Source: Thiotrichales bacterium (lineage in GTDB: Bacteria > Pseudomonadota > Gammaproteobacteria > Thiomicrospirales > Thiomicrospiraceae). From it: a stretch of 64,000 nucleotides of DNA. The notes under the pieces are model-generated. The model was not told the DNA's origin and made no database searches. It saw nothing but the letters and a program-made list of their open reading frames with translations. The position numbers were made by a program, and so were the translations under genes. The stretch lies in NCBI GenBank assembly GCA_016938655.1, contig JAFGUG010000099.1:1-64000 (forward strand), read 5' to 3'. Every line of letters starts with the position of its first letter. The first letter of the stretch is position 1. Shown piece after piece: positions 50,421 to 54,456 of the stretch.

Positions 50421-50434
50421 TTAGCCTTGCCTAA
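50421..50434. promoter_or_regulatory. DtxR/MntR-type operator candidate upstream of the metal ABC operon
   Basis: TTAGCCTTGCCTAA, within a wider imperfect palindrome (AAAGTT and AACTTT arms), lies 62 bp before the first gene of the transporter operon. It resembles the TTAGG...CCTAA-type half-sites of the DtxR/MntR family. No separate regulator gene is in the window. Confidence 0.4.
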
Positions 50435-50496
50435 CTTTTTATTTAGCCTCAACACATAATTTATTTAAAACAACCCGAAACATGAGATAAAACATA

Positions 50497-51411
50497 ATGA
50501 TATTGCGCTTAATGAAAACTCTATTGATCAGTTTCATGATGGTATTTTTTAGTGTTTCAGCCCATGCTAAACTCAACGTCGTCACTACAACCGGGATGAT
50601 TGCCGACTTAGTGCAAAACATCGGCGGCGACCAGGTGAGTGTCACGCCATTAATGAGCACCGGTGTCGACCCACACCTGTATAAAGCAACCCAAGGCGAT
50701 TTGCGCAAACTCATGAAAGCCGACATCATTTTTTACAATGGCCTGCACTTAGAAGGCAAGATGCAAGATATCTTTGAGAAGATGGCGCGTAATAAAGCGG
50801 TGTATGCAGTGGCCAACAACTTACCGAGCAACAAAGTCATTCATCACGGCGCGCATACCGACCCACACGTATGGTTTGATATTCAGCTTTGGATGCAAGC
50901 CGGTGAAAACGTCTTAAACGCACTGATTAAACATGACCCAAAACAGCAAGCACGGTTTAAAGACAATGCTGCACGCTACTTTCAAAAATTAACCGAATTA
51001 GACCGGTGGACGGCTCAACAAATCAAAAGCATCCCTGAACAACAACGTATTTTGATTACCGCACACGATGCGTTTGGCTATTTTGGTCAAGCGTACGGAT
51101 TACAAGTTAAAGGACTGCAAGGCGTAAGCACAGCGGCAGAGTTTGGACTGCAAGACATCAAACAACTCAAAGACATTATTGTGGCCAATAAAATCAAAGC
51201 GGTATTTGTTGAGTCCAGTGTCTCGCCTCGCTTTATTCAATCTCTAGTGAAAGGAGTGGAAGCCGAAGGCCATAGCCTAAAAATTGGTGGCGAACTCTAC
51301 TCAGATGCCATGGGCTTGACCAATACCCCAGAGGGCACTTACATCGGCATGGTAACCCATAATGTGAAAACCATTGTTGGCGCACTTAAAGGGGAAGCAC
51401 ACCATGAGTAA
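50497..51411 (+). CDS. Mn/Zn ABC transporter, periplasmic substrate-binding protein (TroA/ZnuA family)
   Basis: 304 residues with a signal peptide (about 1-24, cut after SAHA). Metal-ligand candidates are H60 (GVDPHLY), H124 (DPHVW), H190 (AHDAFGYF) and D270 (YSDAMG). Three His and one Asp is the TroA-like set, which can bind Zn or Mn. The region TTTGMIADLVQNIGGD and the tail GTYIGMVTHN closely match TroA. The start may be ATG 50512. It is the first of four genes (binding protein, ATPase, two permeases), the troABCD order. Confidence 0.88.
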   Translation: MILRLMKTLLISFMMVFFSVSAHAKLNVVTTTGMIADLVQNIGGDQVSVTPLMSTGVDPHLYKATQGDLRKLMKADIIFYNGLHLEGKMQDIFEKMARNKAVYAVANNLPSNKVIHHGAHTDPHVWFDIQLWMQAGENVLNALIKHDPKQQARFKDNAARYFQKLTELDRWTAQQIKSIPEQQRILITAHDAFGYFGQAYGLQVKGLQGVSTAAEFGLQDIKQLKDIIVANKIKAVFVESSVSPRFIQSLVKGVEAEGHSLKIGGELYSDAMGLTNTPEGTYIGMVTHNVKTIVGALKGEAHHE

Positions 51412-52201
51412 CAGTGCCAACCGCCCTGCGCCTATAAATGTGCAAAACTTAAGCATGCGTTATCACCACAAACCGGTGTTAACTGACGTCAGCTTTGAGA
51501 TTCCAGAGGGCAAAACCATTGCCATTGTCGGCCCAAATGGCGCAGGTAAATCGACGCTACTTAAAGGCATGATGGGACTCGAACCTCTTATTGAAGGCAG
51601 TGTGAGTTTCTTTGGTGAACCGCTGACTGAAAAACGACTCTCTACCGCTTACGTGCCCCAGCGTGAAGAGATTGACTGGGACTTTCCAATCTCAGTGATG
51701 GACGTGGTGTTGATGGGACGTCATGGCCAGCTCAAACTTTGGCAACGTCCAGGCAAACTCGATCATGAAATTGCCGAACAAGCGCTTAAAGACCTGCAAA
51801 TGTGGGACTTTCGTGACCGTCAAATCAGCCAACTCTCTGGCGGCCAACAGCAACGTGTATTTTTGGCACGTGCCTTAGCACAACAAGCTAACTTGTATCT
51901 AATGGATGAACCGTTTGCCGGCGTGGATGTGGCCACCGAAAAAGCCATTATCGAACTGTTCAAAACCCTCAAAGCCCAAGGCAAAACCATAGTTTGCGTG
52001 CATCACGATTTAAACACTGTTGGCGAATATTTTGATTGGATTTTATTTATCAATGCACGCCTAGTCGCAGCCGGTCCGGTTGAAGAGGTGCTCACCAAAG
52101 AGAACCTACAAAAAACCTACGGCGGTCGTTTATCGCTGTTGAATGACCTCACCGAAGAGATGTATCGTACCCGTCTTAACCAAGCCCACAAAAGCGATTA
52201 A
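51404..52201 (+). CDS. Mn/Zn ABC transporter, ATP-binding protein
   Basis: 265 residues from ATG 51404 (MSNSANRPAP), preceded by GGGGAAG; a start ten codons earlier is less likely. Walker A GPNGAGKST, the signature LSGGQQQRV and Walker B LYLMDEP, followed by a His switch (VCVHHDL), are all present. It overlaps the binding-protein stop by 8 bases. Confidence 0.93.
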   Translation: MSNSANRPAPINVQNLSMRYHHKPVLTDVSFEIPEGKTIAIVGPNGAGKSTLLKGMMGLEPLIEGSVSFFGEPLTEKRLSTAYVPQREEIDWDFPISVMDVVLMGRHGQLKLWQRPGKLDHEIAEQALKDLQMWDFRDRQISQLSGGQQQRVFLARALAQQANLYLMDEPFAGVDVATEKAIIELFKTLKAQGKTIVCVHHDLNTVGEYFDWILFINARLVAAGPVEEVLTKENLQKTYGGRLSLLNDLTEEMYRTRLNQAHKSD

Positions 52202-52213
52202 GGCAGATATATC

Positions 52214-53566
52214 ATGGATTCGTTCACCCTCCTCGACCCAACTCTTGCCCCCAGCACTTGGCAACTGCTTAAAGAATTTTGGCAGTTCAATGACATGAAT
52301 GTTTTGTGGGTCTTAATGGGCAGTATTTTACTGGGCATCAGTGCCTCAGTGATTGGCTCATTTGCCTTTTTAAGACGCCGCTCGTTAATTGGCGATGCCC
52401 TTGCGCATGCCGCACTTCCCGGTGTAATGGTAGCGTTTTTACTATTTCAGACCCGTGATCCGATGGTGATGTTTTTAGGCGCCGTGGCATCAAGTTTTAT
52501 CGGTTTTTTCATTATCGATTGGTTACCTAAAAACACCAAAATCAAACCCGATGCGGCCTTGGCGATTACCCTCTCTTTCTTTTTTGCGCTAGGCTTAATG
52601 CTGCTGTCCTTTATTCAGGGCATGGAAGTCGAGAACAAAAGCGGACTGGATAAAATTTTATTTGGTCAAGCGGCCGCCATGACCCATGAAGACATTACAT
52701 TGCTCATGTACGTAACAATTTTTATCTTAATTAACGTCGTGCTGTTTTTTCAAAAGTTTCGACTCATCGCATTTAACAGCAGTTACGCCCGCAGTTTGGG
52801 GATCGCGGTCAATCGTTATGAGCTCTTGCTCGCCCTATTGATTGTTATGTCCGTGGTGGTTGGTTTGCAGTTAGTGGGCGTGGTATTAATGGCGGCCGTG
52901 TTGTTAACCCCGGTTGCCACCGCCCGTCTATGGAGTAATCAATTACGCAACATTCTGTTACTTGCGGGCACAGTGGGGGCAATGAGTGCCATTATTAGCA
53001 CGCAAATCTCGTATCTTGCGCCCGCCATGCCAACCGGTCCTTGGATGGTGGTGAGCCTATCCACTCTATTCTTTTTGTCACTGCTGTTTGCACCCGATAA
53101 AGGATTAATTCAACGTTACCTTAAACAGCACCAACTGCGTCAACGGGTATCGCAAGAGAACATTTTGCGCACGCTCTACAAGCTATGGGAACGAAGTGAA
53201 TTTACCCAGAACGATTTCAGCATCTCAGATATTCAAGCATTGCGTGCCATGAACACACATGACTTGCGAAAAACCCTCAAACAGCTGTGTCGTAACACCT
53301 TACTTAAAGAGTCCGCACGTGGCTTTCGACTCACTGAATCTGGCTTAGAGCAAGCCACTCAGTTAACCCGTCGTCATCGCTTGTGGGAGAACTACCTTAA
53401 TGAACACTTAGAGTTAAGCCCTGACCAGGTGCACTCGCAAGCCGAACGAATCGAGCACATTCTAACCCTAGAACAAGAGAAACAGCTTGAAGAGGAACTC
53501 AAAGACAGCTTGCAAGACCCACATGGCAATGCCATTCCAAATGGTGCAACAGGCGGTGTTAAGTGA
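52214..53566 (+). CDS. Mn/Zn ABC transporter permease with C-terminal MntR/DtxR-like domain
   Basis: 450 residues. Residues 1 to about 295 form an ABC-3 permease with about nine helices. Residues about 313-442 match the DtxR/MntR fold: a winged helix (ILRTLYKLWERSE through FRLTESGLEQA) and the dimerisation segment RRHRLWENYLNEHLELSP, ending DPHGNAIP. By alignment with remembered DtxR and MntR, H388, E411, E414 and H415 sit where MntR has H77, E99, E102 and H103. The N-terminal ligands (MntR D8, E11) appear to be N316 and R319. Such fusions are known in some TroC/MntC-type permeases. The domain may sense metal in the cytoplasm or gate transport. Confidence 0.9.
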   Translation: MDSFTLLDPTLAPSTWQLLKEFWQFNDMNVLWVLMGSILLGISASVIGSFAFLRRRSLIGDALAHAALPGVMVAFLLFQTRDPMVMFLGAVASSFIGFFIIDWLPKNTKIKPDAALAITLSFFFALGLMLLSFIQGMEVENKSGLDKILFGQAAAMTHEDITLLMYVTIFILINVVLFFQKFRLIAFNSSYARSLGIAVNRYELLLALLIVMSVVVGLQLVGVVLMAAVLLTPVATARLWSNQLRNILLLAGTVGAMSAIISTQISYLAPAMPTGPWMVVSLSTLFFLSLLFAPDKGLIQRYLKQHQLRQRVSQENILRTLYKLWERSEFTQNDFSISDIQALRAMNTHDLRKTLKQLCRNTLLKESARGFRLTESGLEQATQLTRRHRLWENYLNEHLELSPDQVHSQAERIEHILTLEQEKQLEEELKDSLQDPHGNAIPNGATGGVK

Positions 53567-54456
53567 TGAATGATTTACTGATTATTGCCACCGCCTCGTT
53601 AGTTGCCATCTCAAGTGCTTTAGTTGGGGTGTTTTTAATTTTACGCCGTCAAGCTCTCATGGGCGACGCCATCAGCCACTCGGTTTTATTGGGCATTGTC
53701 ATCGCGTTTTTAGCCACCGATTCGCGTTCGTTACCGGTTATGTTAACGGGTGCGGTGTTTATTGGCCTCCTCACCGCTTGGTTAAGTGATACCTTGCACA
53801 AGGTCGGTAAATTACAGAGCGATGCCAGTATTGGGATTGTCTTCACGCTGTTTTTTGCGGTGGGCGTGATTTTAGTCTCTTTGTACGCAGGTCAAATTGA
53901 CCTTGACCAAGAGTGCGTGCTTTATGGTGAAATCGCTTTTGTACCCTTTGACACCATTGTTTGGGGCAGTGCCGAAAATGGCACTGATATTGGCCCACGA
54001 GCGTTATGGGCGATTGGTATTGTGTTTTTGATTGTTTTGGCCAGTATTCTAGTGGGCTTTGAACGCCTTAAAACCGTGACCTTCCACCCAAGTTTGGCGG
54101 TCTCTTTAGGCATTAACGTGGTATTTTGGCACTACTTTTTAATGACTTTGGTCTCCATGACCACCGTGGCTTCGTTTGATGCAGTCGGTGCTATTTTGGT
54201 AGTGGCACTGTTAGTGATTCCAGCCAGCAGTGCGTATTTAGTGTCTTCATCCTTAAAGAGTATGCTGTGGATTGCCGCCGCTTATGGTCAAGCTTCGGTT
54301 TTACTGGGATATGGGGTGGCTTTTTGGTTAGACAGCTCTATCTCCGCATCCATTGCCGTCATAGCAGGCCTGCTGCTTTTTGGCACGATTGTGATTTTAG
54401 AAGTTCGTAAAAAGGTATTTGGCAAACAGATAAAAGCCGCTTTACGCGCTCGATAA
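53563..54456 (+). CDS. Mn/Zn ABC transporter permease, second subunit
   Basis: 297 residues with about nine helices, an ABC-3 permease (TroD/MntD-like) without an extra C-terminal domain. Typical segments are RRQALMGDAISHSVLLGI and VVALLVIPASSAYLV. It overlaps the preceding gene by 4 bases; ATG 53566 is an alternative start. The exact repeat copy at 54363-54374 encodes AGLLLF of the last helix. Confidence 0.92.
   Translation: MMNDLLIIATASLVAISSALVGVFLILRRQALMGDAISHSVLLGIVIAFLATDSRSLPVMLTGAVFIGLLTAWLSDTLHKVGKLQSDASIGIVFTLFFAVGVILVSLYAGQIDLDQECVLYGEIAFVPFDTIVWGSAENGTDIGPRALWAIGIVFLIVLASILVGFERLKTVTFHPSLAVSLGINVVFWHYFLMTLVSMTTVASFDAVGAILVVALLVIPASSAYLVSSSLKSMLWIAAAYGQASVLLGYGVAFWLDSSISASIAVIAGLLLFGTIVILEVRKKVFGKQIKAALRAR
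54363..54374. repeat. Exact copy of the AGCAGGCCTGCT palindrome (inside the second permease)
   Basis: Read in frame as Ala-Gly-Leu-Leu in a membrane helix. Right flank GCTTTT. Confidence 0.8.

What the first reader, a model, noticed from the sequence alone, without database searches (positions are those of the whole stretch)
52214..53566. Metal permease fused to an MntR-like sensor with altered N-terminal ligands
The C-terminal domain keeps residues aligned with MntR ligands H77, E99 (Cys in DtxR), E102 and H103, favouring Mn over Fe. The N-terminal ligand pair appears to be Asn and Arg. A winged helix is still present. A membrane-tethered metal sensor could gate transport or bind DNA next to the membrane, possibly its own operator upstream at 50421.
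Basis: partly seen in the sequence, partly recalled or inferred. Interest (0 to 1): 0.65.

Follow-up and report, generated by a model that had tools for sequence, protein, structure and literature searches.

The report
Metal importer with built-in metal sensor
A bacterial manganese/iron importer carries, on its own channel protein, a domain derived from a metal-sensing gene repressor; comparison of many relatives suggests that the domain still binds metal but no longer reads DNA, so it probably slows the importer directly when the cell has enough metal.

Summary
Window 52214-53566 encodes a 450-aa ABC-3 permease (TroC/PsaC type) ending in a DtxR/MntR-like domain, in a troABCD-like operon. Arg/Lys there is normal for the family; Asn316 is invariant in 59 of 59 collected fusions, so it looks selected. 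The palindrome at 50421 is a conserved operator, but the fused domain is probably not what reads it. The genome has a separate, complete DtxR/MntR-like protein. In 31 genomes with both, recognition-helix identity is 42% (fused) against 84% (separate); helix alpha-1 is equal. Pfam's DNA-binding model matches 34 of 34 separate regulators scanned and 0 of 40 fusions. The operator is present in 30 of 30 readable upstream regions from genomes with the separate regulator (two lack the fusion) and in 0 of 2 with the fusion alone. Best reading: a transporter-attached metal sensor that inhibits import, beside a soluble repressor. The architecture is known (Chlamydia YtgCR, where the domain is reported to be cleaved and to bind DNA); new is the comparative evidence that here it lost DNA reading and kept the metal site. 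Inhibition itself is inferred, not shown.

The parts
50421..50434 (.). Operator TTAGCCTTGCCTAA (TTAG-N6-CTAA palindrome) 62 bp upstream of the binding-protein gene; predicted target of the separate DtxR/MntR protein
   Evidence: Sequence; pattern search; a TTAG-N6-CTAA site in 30 of 32 readable 250-base upstream regions against 0.31 expected by chance
50497..51411 (+). Periplasmic metal-binding protein, TroA-like
   Evidence: Pfam ZnuA 277.6 bits; best solved relative TroA 1toa, 279.8 bits
51404..52201 (+). ATPase subunit (TroB/MntA-like)
   Evidence: Pfam ABC_tran; the two best NCBIfam models are Mn/Fe and Mn ATPases, below their cut-offs
52214..53566 (+). Fused permease-sensor, 450 aa
52298..53089 (+). 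Permease domain, residues 29-292
   Evidence: Pfam ABC-3; PsaBC 7kyp_P Z 33.7 over 269 residues
53105..53194 (+). Predicted continuous helix 298-327 joining the permease to the sensor; includes alpha-1 of the DtxR-like fold
   Evidence: AlphaFold2 secondary structure
53159..53161 (+). Asn316, at the DtxR M10 / MntR D8 position
   Evidence: alignment; invariant in 59 of 59
53168..53170 (+). Arg319, at the DtxR R13 / MntR E11 position
   Evidence: alignment; R 32, K 27 of 59
53222..53332 (+). Helix-turn-helix and wing, residues 337-373; fold predicted, DNA-reading surface not conserved
   Evidence: no Pfam PF01325 match in 40 of 40 fusions scanned
53333..53542 (+). Metal-binding/dimerisation domain, residues 374-443
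   Evidence: Pfam Fe_dep_repr_C
53375..53458 (+). Metal ligands H388 (53375-53377), E392 (53387-53389), H407 (53432-53434), E411 (53444-53446), E414 (53453-53455), H415 (53456-53458)
   Evidence: each invariant in 59 of 59 fusions
53563..54456 (+). Second permease, 297 aa, without a sensor domain (TroD-like)
   Evidence: Pfam ABC-3 (and a sub-threshold FecCD match) only

Best explanation
The protein is the TroC-type permease of a Mn/Fe-type ABC importer with a DtxR/MntR-derived cytosolic sensor fixed to its last membrane helix. Shown by sequence comparison: the sensor keeps the whole metal-ligand set and the helix that joins it to the membrane, has lost constraint on the DNA-reading helix, and in most genomes coexists with a separate complete DtxR/MntR protein whose presence, unlike the fusion's, goes with the operator at 50421. 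Inferred: when cytosolic metal is sufficient, metal binds between alpha-1 (Asn316) and the C-terminal ligands (E411, E414, H415; second site H388/E392/H407). This fixes the angle of the continuous helix 298-327 relative to the sensor body, possibly with dimerisation of two sensors, and holds the transporter in a non-cycling state (trans-inhibition). Control is then two-layered: a soluble DtxR/MntR represses the genes, and the attached sensor acts at once on importer already made. The metal is most likely Mn(II), with Fe(II) next.
For: (1) All seven ligand-position residues are invariant in 59 of 59 fusions. (2) In 31 genomes with both proteins, mean pairwise identity, fused versus separate: recognition helix 0.42 v 0.84 (separate higher in 458 of 465 pairs), wing 0.34 v 0.68, alpha-1 0.83 v 0.83, metal/dimer domain 0.66 v 0.83. 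(3) In 25 close pairs, pN/pS of the fusion is 0.08 in the permease, 0.08 in alpha-1, 0.09 in the metal domain, but 0.25 in the recognition helix and 0.39 in the wing; in the separate regulator, recognition helix 0.08 and wing 0.18. So the domain is selected, least so where DNA would be read. (4) PF01325, the DtxR DNA-binding model, matches 0 of 40 fusions and 34 of 34 separate regulators at E 0.001. (5) Operator: 30 of 32 readable upstream regions; the two without it (G018, G028) are the only two of the 32 whose genome gave no separate regulator; two genomes with an unfused permease keep it. (6) The fusion and its ligands persist in G018 and G028 without a soluble regulator. (7) In the genomes of 27 fusion loci outside Gammaproteobacteria, 23 also have a separate DtxR of 222-263 aa. 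(8) The predicted helix 298-327 is continuous from linker into alpha-1. (9) Substrate-binding domains fused to ABC importers that trans-inhibit are established for MetNI and ModBC (passages of PMC10710835).
Against: No transport or metal-binding data exist. The chlamydial relative YtgCR is reported to be cleaved and to bind DNA. The ABC trans-inhibition domains described in the passages read sit on the ATPase, not on the permease. Only one of the two permeases carries the sensor, so a dimer inside one transporter needs a permease homodimer or two transporters side by side. Relaxation of the DNA-reading helix is also what a purely structural or partner-binding role would give. The metal/dimer domain of the fusion, though conserved, varies more than that of the separate regulator (0.66 v 0.83). 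The helix-turn-helix is relaxed, not free: its pN/pS (0.19-0.39) stays well under 1. Four of the 27 other genomes lack a full-length separate DtxR (three none, one only shorter proteins), all four being bins by their record titles. Asn is a weaker metal ligand than Asp (recalled).
Confidence: 0.6

Rival explanations
1. YtgR-like: the C-terminal domain is cut from the permease, or acts while tethered, and represses its own operon at the 50421 operator.
For: YtgCR of Chlamydia trachomatis has this architecture and is reported to be cleaved to a DNA-binding iron-dependent repressor. A winged-helix fold is predicted here, and a DtxR-type operator exists.
Against: The recognition helix is variable within one genus/family while the operator is conserved. 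The operator is missing in the two genomes that have only the fusion and present in two genomes without the fusion. PF01325 matches 0 of 40 fusions. A separate DtxR is present in 31 of 33 fusion genomes of the genus/family.
Confidence: 0.1
2. Membrane anchor for the soluble repressor: the fused domain pairs with the separate DtxR/MntR through the dimerisation domain and holds it at the membrane according to transporter state, so transport activity signals to transcription.
For: Both proteins keep the dimerisation/metal domain and co-occur in 31 of 33 fusion genomes of the genus/family and 23 of 27 others. A partner-binding role would not need the DNA-reading helix.
Against: The fusion with intact ligands persists in G018 and G028, where no separate DtxR was found. 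In a selection of 69 domains, fused and separate ones split into two groups across a 100/99 branch; co-variation of interfaces was not tested.
Confidence: 0.15
3. A structural or assembly role: the domain stabilises the transporter or is a cytosolic metal relay, handing metal off after import, without inhibition.
For: Conserved metal ligands and connecting helix fit a relay as well as a sensor.
Against: The ligand positions of both DtxR sites are retained, which fits a sensor better than an open relay; two relatives have an unfused permease.
Confidence: 0.15

Closest known systems
YtgCR (CT069) of Chlamydia trachomatis
   Same: ABC metal permease with a C-terminal DtxR-like domain, in a ytgABCD operon (read in passages of PMC5599777, PMC7755916 and PMC6504234).
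   Different: YtgR is reported to be the only identified iron-dependent regulator there, to be cleaved off and to bind its operator. Here a separate DtxR exists, the operator goes with it, and the DNA-reading helix is relaxed. The YtgCR sequence itself was not compared here.
TroABCD-TroR of Treponema
   Same: Binding protein closest to TroA; four-gene importer; in seven relatives a separate DtxR follows as a fifth gene (G010, G012, G019, G023, G024, G026, G036), as in troABCDR (abstract of PMC2628430).
   Different: No sensor fused to TroC was mentioned in the passages read of PMC2628430; here the permease carries a DtxR-like domain of its own.
PsaBC / MntBC manganese importers
   Same: Permease fold: PsaBC chain 7kyp_P Z 33.7, 34% identity over 269 residues.
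   Different: The solved PsaC chains (258-290 residues) have no room for a sensor; PsaBC and MntBC are described as homodimers (abstract of PMC11779740), whereas this operon has two different permeases.
MntR / DtxR / SloR repressors
   Same: Fold (Z 14.5-19.2 in the 50 rows shown) and metal-ligand pattern.
   Different: Attached to a membrane permease; DNA-binding model PF01325 not matched; no SH3/FeoA domain in this protein.
MetNI (C2 domain) and ModBC trans-inhibited ABC importers
   Same: Works-like candidate: a fused cytosolic domain that binds the transported substrate and stops transport (passages of PMC10710835).
   Different: Domain on the ATPase rather than the permease and not described as DtxR-like; no family relation claimed.

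Membership tests
YtgCR-type permease-repressor fusion | ABC-3 permease followed by a DtxR-like domain in one reading frame | tested here: met
   40 of 40 members of alignment A1 match both Pfam models
YtgCR-type permease-repressor fusion | the domain acts as the operon's DNA-binding repressor | tested here: not met
   Comparative evidence only: relaxed recognition helix, PF01325 in 0 of 40, operator goes with the separate regulator. No binding assay was possible.
YtgCR-type permease-repressor fusion | proteolytic release of the repressor | not testable with these tools
   needs immunoblot or N-terminal sequencing
DtxR/MntR family | metal-binding/dimerisation domain PF02742 with its ligands | tested here: met
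   PF02742 73.3 bits over a cut-off of 27; ligand positions invariant in 59 of 59
DtxR/MntR family | N-terminal DNA-binding domain PF01325 | tested here: not met
   0 of 40 fusions at E 0.001 against 34 of 34 separate regulators; the fold is nevertheless predicted
Mn/Zn/Fe ABC importer of the Tro/Psa/Mnt type (ABC-3) | ABC-3 permease, metal-binding protein of the ZnuA/TroA family and ATPase in one operon | tested here: met
   genes at 50497-54456
Mn/Zn/Fe ABC importer of the Tro/Psa/Mnt type (ABC-3) | which metal is transported | not testable with these tools
   best solved relative TroA; NCBIfam's best model for the binding protein is a zinc one (AztC), followed by Mn and Mn/Fe ones, none at its cut-off
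Trans-inhibited ABC importers | substrate binding to a fused cytosolic domain inhibits transport | not testable with these tools
   needs uptake assays; inferred here

The most novel reading that the evidence does not exclude
A DtxR/MntR repressor domain has been repurposed, in importers of Gammaproteobacteria and Bacteroidota/Balneolota, from DNA-reading repressor to an allosteric brake on a Mn/Fe ABC importer, working in parallel with a soluble repressor. It would be a trans-inhibition domain of a transition-metal ABC importer, placed on the permease. A parallel case, a membrane-tethered DtxR-like domain joined to FeoA beside split feoB genes in Bacteroidota, would make 'metallorepressor domain attached to its importer' a general theme.
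Probability: 0.45. Interest if true: 0.72.

Novelty: new variant of a known kind. Interest (0 to 1): 0.55.

Why it matters
If true, cells with this system sense metal twice with the same fold, once on DNA and once on the importer, giving fast feedback for metals that become toxic quickly. It would supply a model of feedback inhibition in Mn/Fe ABC importers that can be tested directly. It would also show how a repressor domain loses its DNA role and keeps its sensor role, and would caution against reading every permease-DtxR fusion as a YtgR-like repressor.

Tried and rejected
Rejected: (a) 'Altered N-terminal ligand pair' as a sign of decay. R319 is the usual R/K of the family, and N316 is invariant in 59 of 59. 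But Asn is not universal: by eye, two longer fusions with a FeoA-like end (L177, L178) have Asp there, one further gammaproteobacterial fusion (L175) has Asn, and another (L176) has His and also lacks two other ligands. (b) HRLWE as a fusion-specific signature: Trp is invariant in the 59 fusions and absent at that place from 41 separate regulators, but it is present in the separate regulator of L170. (c) A wider regulon from the operator pattern: six sites in the genome, as many as for the reversed control pattern; four of the other five lie inside long reading frames; only the 50421 site has comparative support. (d) Gain or loss of the fusion on the permease tree: the rows that matter are long branches and the bootstrap had not settled; no claim is made. 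(e) I first expected a PsaA-like Glu ligand in the binding protein; the best match is TroA, so I make no metal claim from it.

Dropped or untested rows: one search counted 42 separate regulators, but one row (L103) had been overwritten by a fragment of a fusion; counts here use the other 41, and the comparison and the Pfam scan did not use that row. Upstream regions of G001, G004 and G011 were not used (contig ends); G006, G032 and G034 were not counted (no full fusion found; G032 has only a weak, interrupted DtxR match). L019 has fusion and operator, but its genome was not held, so its separate regulator could not be sought. L047, a cut fusion, was left out of the 59, and the fusions of G012, G024 and G033 were fetched later and are not among them. 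In one search the Chryseobacterium/Sphingobacterium-type loci (L027, L028, L031, L034, L035, L049, L052) had no TTAG-N6-CTAA site before the binding-protein gene; Balneolota operators, which would lie upstream of the first gene dtxR, were not examined. G018's binding-protein gene is read in two frames and was left as it is. In the domain tree G018 and G028 fall in one small group, unlike. No YtgCR sequence was reached, so it was compared through papers only. In the listings of literature searches (titles and abstract starts; several lists were capped) I saw no description of such fusions outside Chlamydia; the library lacks most subscription papers, and only the papers named in the text were opened, in passages or abstract.

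Full report
WHAT IS THERE. Window 50497-54456 is a four-gene metal importer: a TroA-like binding protein, an ATPase, the 450-aa protein of the finding (52214-53566) and a second permease. The 450-aa protein has an ABC-3 permease (residues 29-292) and a DtxR-like metal-binding/dimerisation domain (374-443). An AlphaFold2 model built from 40 fusions (mean pLDDT 78.5, pTM 0.63) places the permease on PsaBC (7kyp_P, Z 33.7, rmsd 2.3, 269 residues) and residues 309-448 on DtxR (2qq9, Z 19.2, rmsd 1.6, 135 residues). In the model a single helix runs from 298 to 327, from the membrane exit into the first helix of the DtxR-like fold. Close relatives are Thiomicrorhabdus, Hydrogenovibrio and Thiomicrospira (record titles).

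LIGANDS. H388, E392, H407, E411, E414 and H415 align with DtxR H79, E83, H98, C102, E105 and H106, and N316 with M10. The ligand roles were read in passages of PMC4805248 and PMC2628430. In 59 non-redundant fusions from Gammaproteobacteria, Bacteroidota/Balneolota and one unclassified bin all seven residues are invariant; R319 is R in 32 and K in 27. The Arg is ordinary and the Asn is conserved, not decayed; Asn occurs also in 6 of 41 separate regulators. Outside this group the position varies: by eye, Asp in two longer fusions ending in a FeoA-like domain, Asn in one and His in one other gammaproteobacterial fusion.

A SEPARATE REGULATOR. The window's own genome (a bin with 7.72% estimated contamination) has one other DtxR-family protein over the PF02742 cut-off, 223 aa on contig C97, with PF01325, PF02742 and FeoA domains. 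Its best NCBIfam model is an MntR, but below the cut-off (174 of 350 bits). Of the 25 same-genus genomes (own included), 24 have this regulator; G018 has none. Of the 13 genomes, ten have it, G018 and G028 do not, and G032 shows only a weak interrupted match. Of the 33 genus/family genomes with the fusion, 31 have both. Of 27 further genomes reached through fusion loci (Bacteroidota, Balneolota, one unclassified), 23 have a separate DtxR of 222-263 aa, one has only shorter proteins and three have none. In seven genus/family genomes the separate gene directly follows the operon, and in Balneolota loci it lies upstream on the same strand.

WHICH OF THE TWO READS DNA. I compared the two proteins in the same 31 genomes, 465 pairs. 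Mean identity, fused against separate: alpha-1 0.826/0.833, helix-turn-helix 0.479/0.795, recognition helix 0.421/0.839, wing 0.344/0.675, metal/dimer domain 0.664/0.831; the permease part is 0.791. In 25 close pairs, which share genomes and are not independent, pN/pS in the fusion is 0.081 (permease), 0.084 (alpha-1), 0.254 (recognition helix), 0.393 (wing) and 0.091 (metal domain); in the separate regulator it is 0.081, 0.081, 0.175 and 0.073 for alpha-1, recognition helix, wing and metal domain. Within the fused recognition helix the core leucines (351, 355, 358) are mostly kept and the surface positions are not. PF01325 matches 0 of 40 fusions and 34 of 34 separate regulators, both being those put into alignments A1 and A2, not all that were fetched. 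The simplest reading is that the fold is kept while the DNA-reading surface is free to change.

THE OPERATOR. TTAG-N6-CTAA, often TTAGCC-NN-GRCTAA, lies upstream of the binding-protein gene; in the window it is at 50421-50434. Of 32 genomes whose upstream 250 bases could be read, 30 have it, against 0.31 expected from order-1 resampling of the same sequences. The two without it, G018 and G028, are the only two of the 32 in which no separate regulator was found. In the permease tree G028 nests in a starred group of six that excludes G018, which suggests two losses; the shorter domain tree places them nearer each other. Two of the 30, G035 and the genome of L045, have an unfused permease and keep both regulator and operator. 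Eight Parapedobacter/Albibacterium loci carry TTAGATTAATCTAA-like sites in the same place; seven Chryseobacterium/Sphingobacterium-type loci carry no TTAG-N6-CTAA there. Within the genus/family the operator thus goes with the separate regulator, not with the fusion. Limits: genomes are related, gene starts were guessed, G028 is 93% complete, and a different operator for the fusion alone cannot be excluded.

MECHANISM. Shown: alpha-1 and the metal domain are under purifying selection about as strong as the permease, the metal-ligand positions are whole, and the fusion persists in the two genomes without a soluble regulator. Inferred: metal binding between alpha-1 and the C-terminal ligands changes the pose of the helix that continues from the permease and slows transport. 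ABC importers with such feedback domains are known for methionine and molybdate/tungstate, on the ATPase (passages of PMC10710835); the term DtxR has count 0 for that review in the listing. Whether two sensors dimerise is open, since the second permease has none; PsaBC and MntBC are described as homodimers (abstract of PMC11779740).

COMPARISON WITH WHAT IS KNOWN. The architecture is that of chlamydial YtgCR, described as cleaved to an iron-dependent DNA-binding repressor (passages of PMC5599777, PMC7755916, PMC6504234). The primary papers (Thompson 2012, not held; Akers 2011) were not read, and YtgCR sequences were not reached. So the window protein belongs to the permease-DtxR fusions by architecture but, on comparative evidence, not to the YtgR-like repressors. 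A tree of 69 selected domains separates fused from separate domains by one branch with support 100/99, which fits one old fusion but does not prove it; some rows are long.

BREADTH. Among 96 evenly drawn Gammaproteobacteria, 7 have PF02742 at all; the fusion was seen in the own genome and, by Pfam on the fetched stretch, in G184 and G213. Among 80 Bacteroidota, 56 have PF02742, and eight genomes have it in a frame of 434-516 aa; of these I verified the ABC-3 part in three (G066 through L028 in alignment A1, G121, G148).

VERDICT. A real, conserved system of a known architecture, with a new and testable division of labour. The best-supported role is a metal sensor on the importer (0.6); a repressor role for the fused domain is unlikely (0.1). 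The mended counts did not change these odds.

Noticed in passing
L170:1815-2840, L171:1112-2137, L172:1480-2502, L173:1244-2254, L174:1295-2323, L179:940-1992: In Bacteroidota/Balneolota a 337-351-aa protein with one N-terminal hydrophobic helix, a P-x-x-G turn, a DtxR-like domain with intact-looking ligands and a C-terminal FeoA-type part (two FeoA stretches by Pfam in L170, the only one scanned). In L170 and L172 it follows a separate DtxR gene and precedes a FeoB GTPase-domain gene. Frames of 328-369 aa with PF02742 occur in 15 of 80 evenly drawn genomes (one of them, G114, may be a plain regulator with a long frame), 12 of them within 1 kb of a separate DtxR. It looks like a second importer-attached DtxR-like sensor.
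   Followed up: partly
L177:2241-3788, L178:2265-3758: Longer permease-DtxR-FeoA fusions (516 and 498 aa; the FeoA match of L178 is below its cut-off) with Asp at the N-terminal ligand position and, by eye, a more canonical helix-turn-helix; possibly a subgroup that still reads DNA.
   Followed up: partly
L176:1418-2821 (G213): Gammaproteobacterial permease-DtxR fusion with, by eye, His at the N-terminal ligand position and Asp at two C-terminal ligand positions; a separate 236-aa DtxR frame lies about 4 kb away.
   Followed up: no
L138 (G018), binding-protein gene: In the genome lacking both operator and separate DtxR, the binding-protein gene is split over two frames; sequencing error or pseudogene not resolved.
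   Followed up: no
window 50442-50448 and same place in relatives: A further TTTAGCC half-site lies shortly downstream of the main operator; similar half-sites are seen by eye in several relatives, suggesting a second regulator dimer.
   Followed up: no
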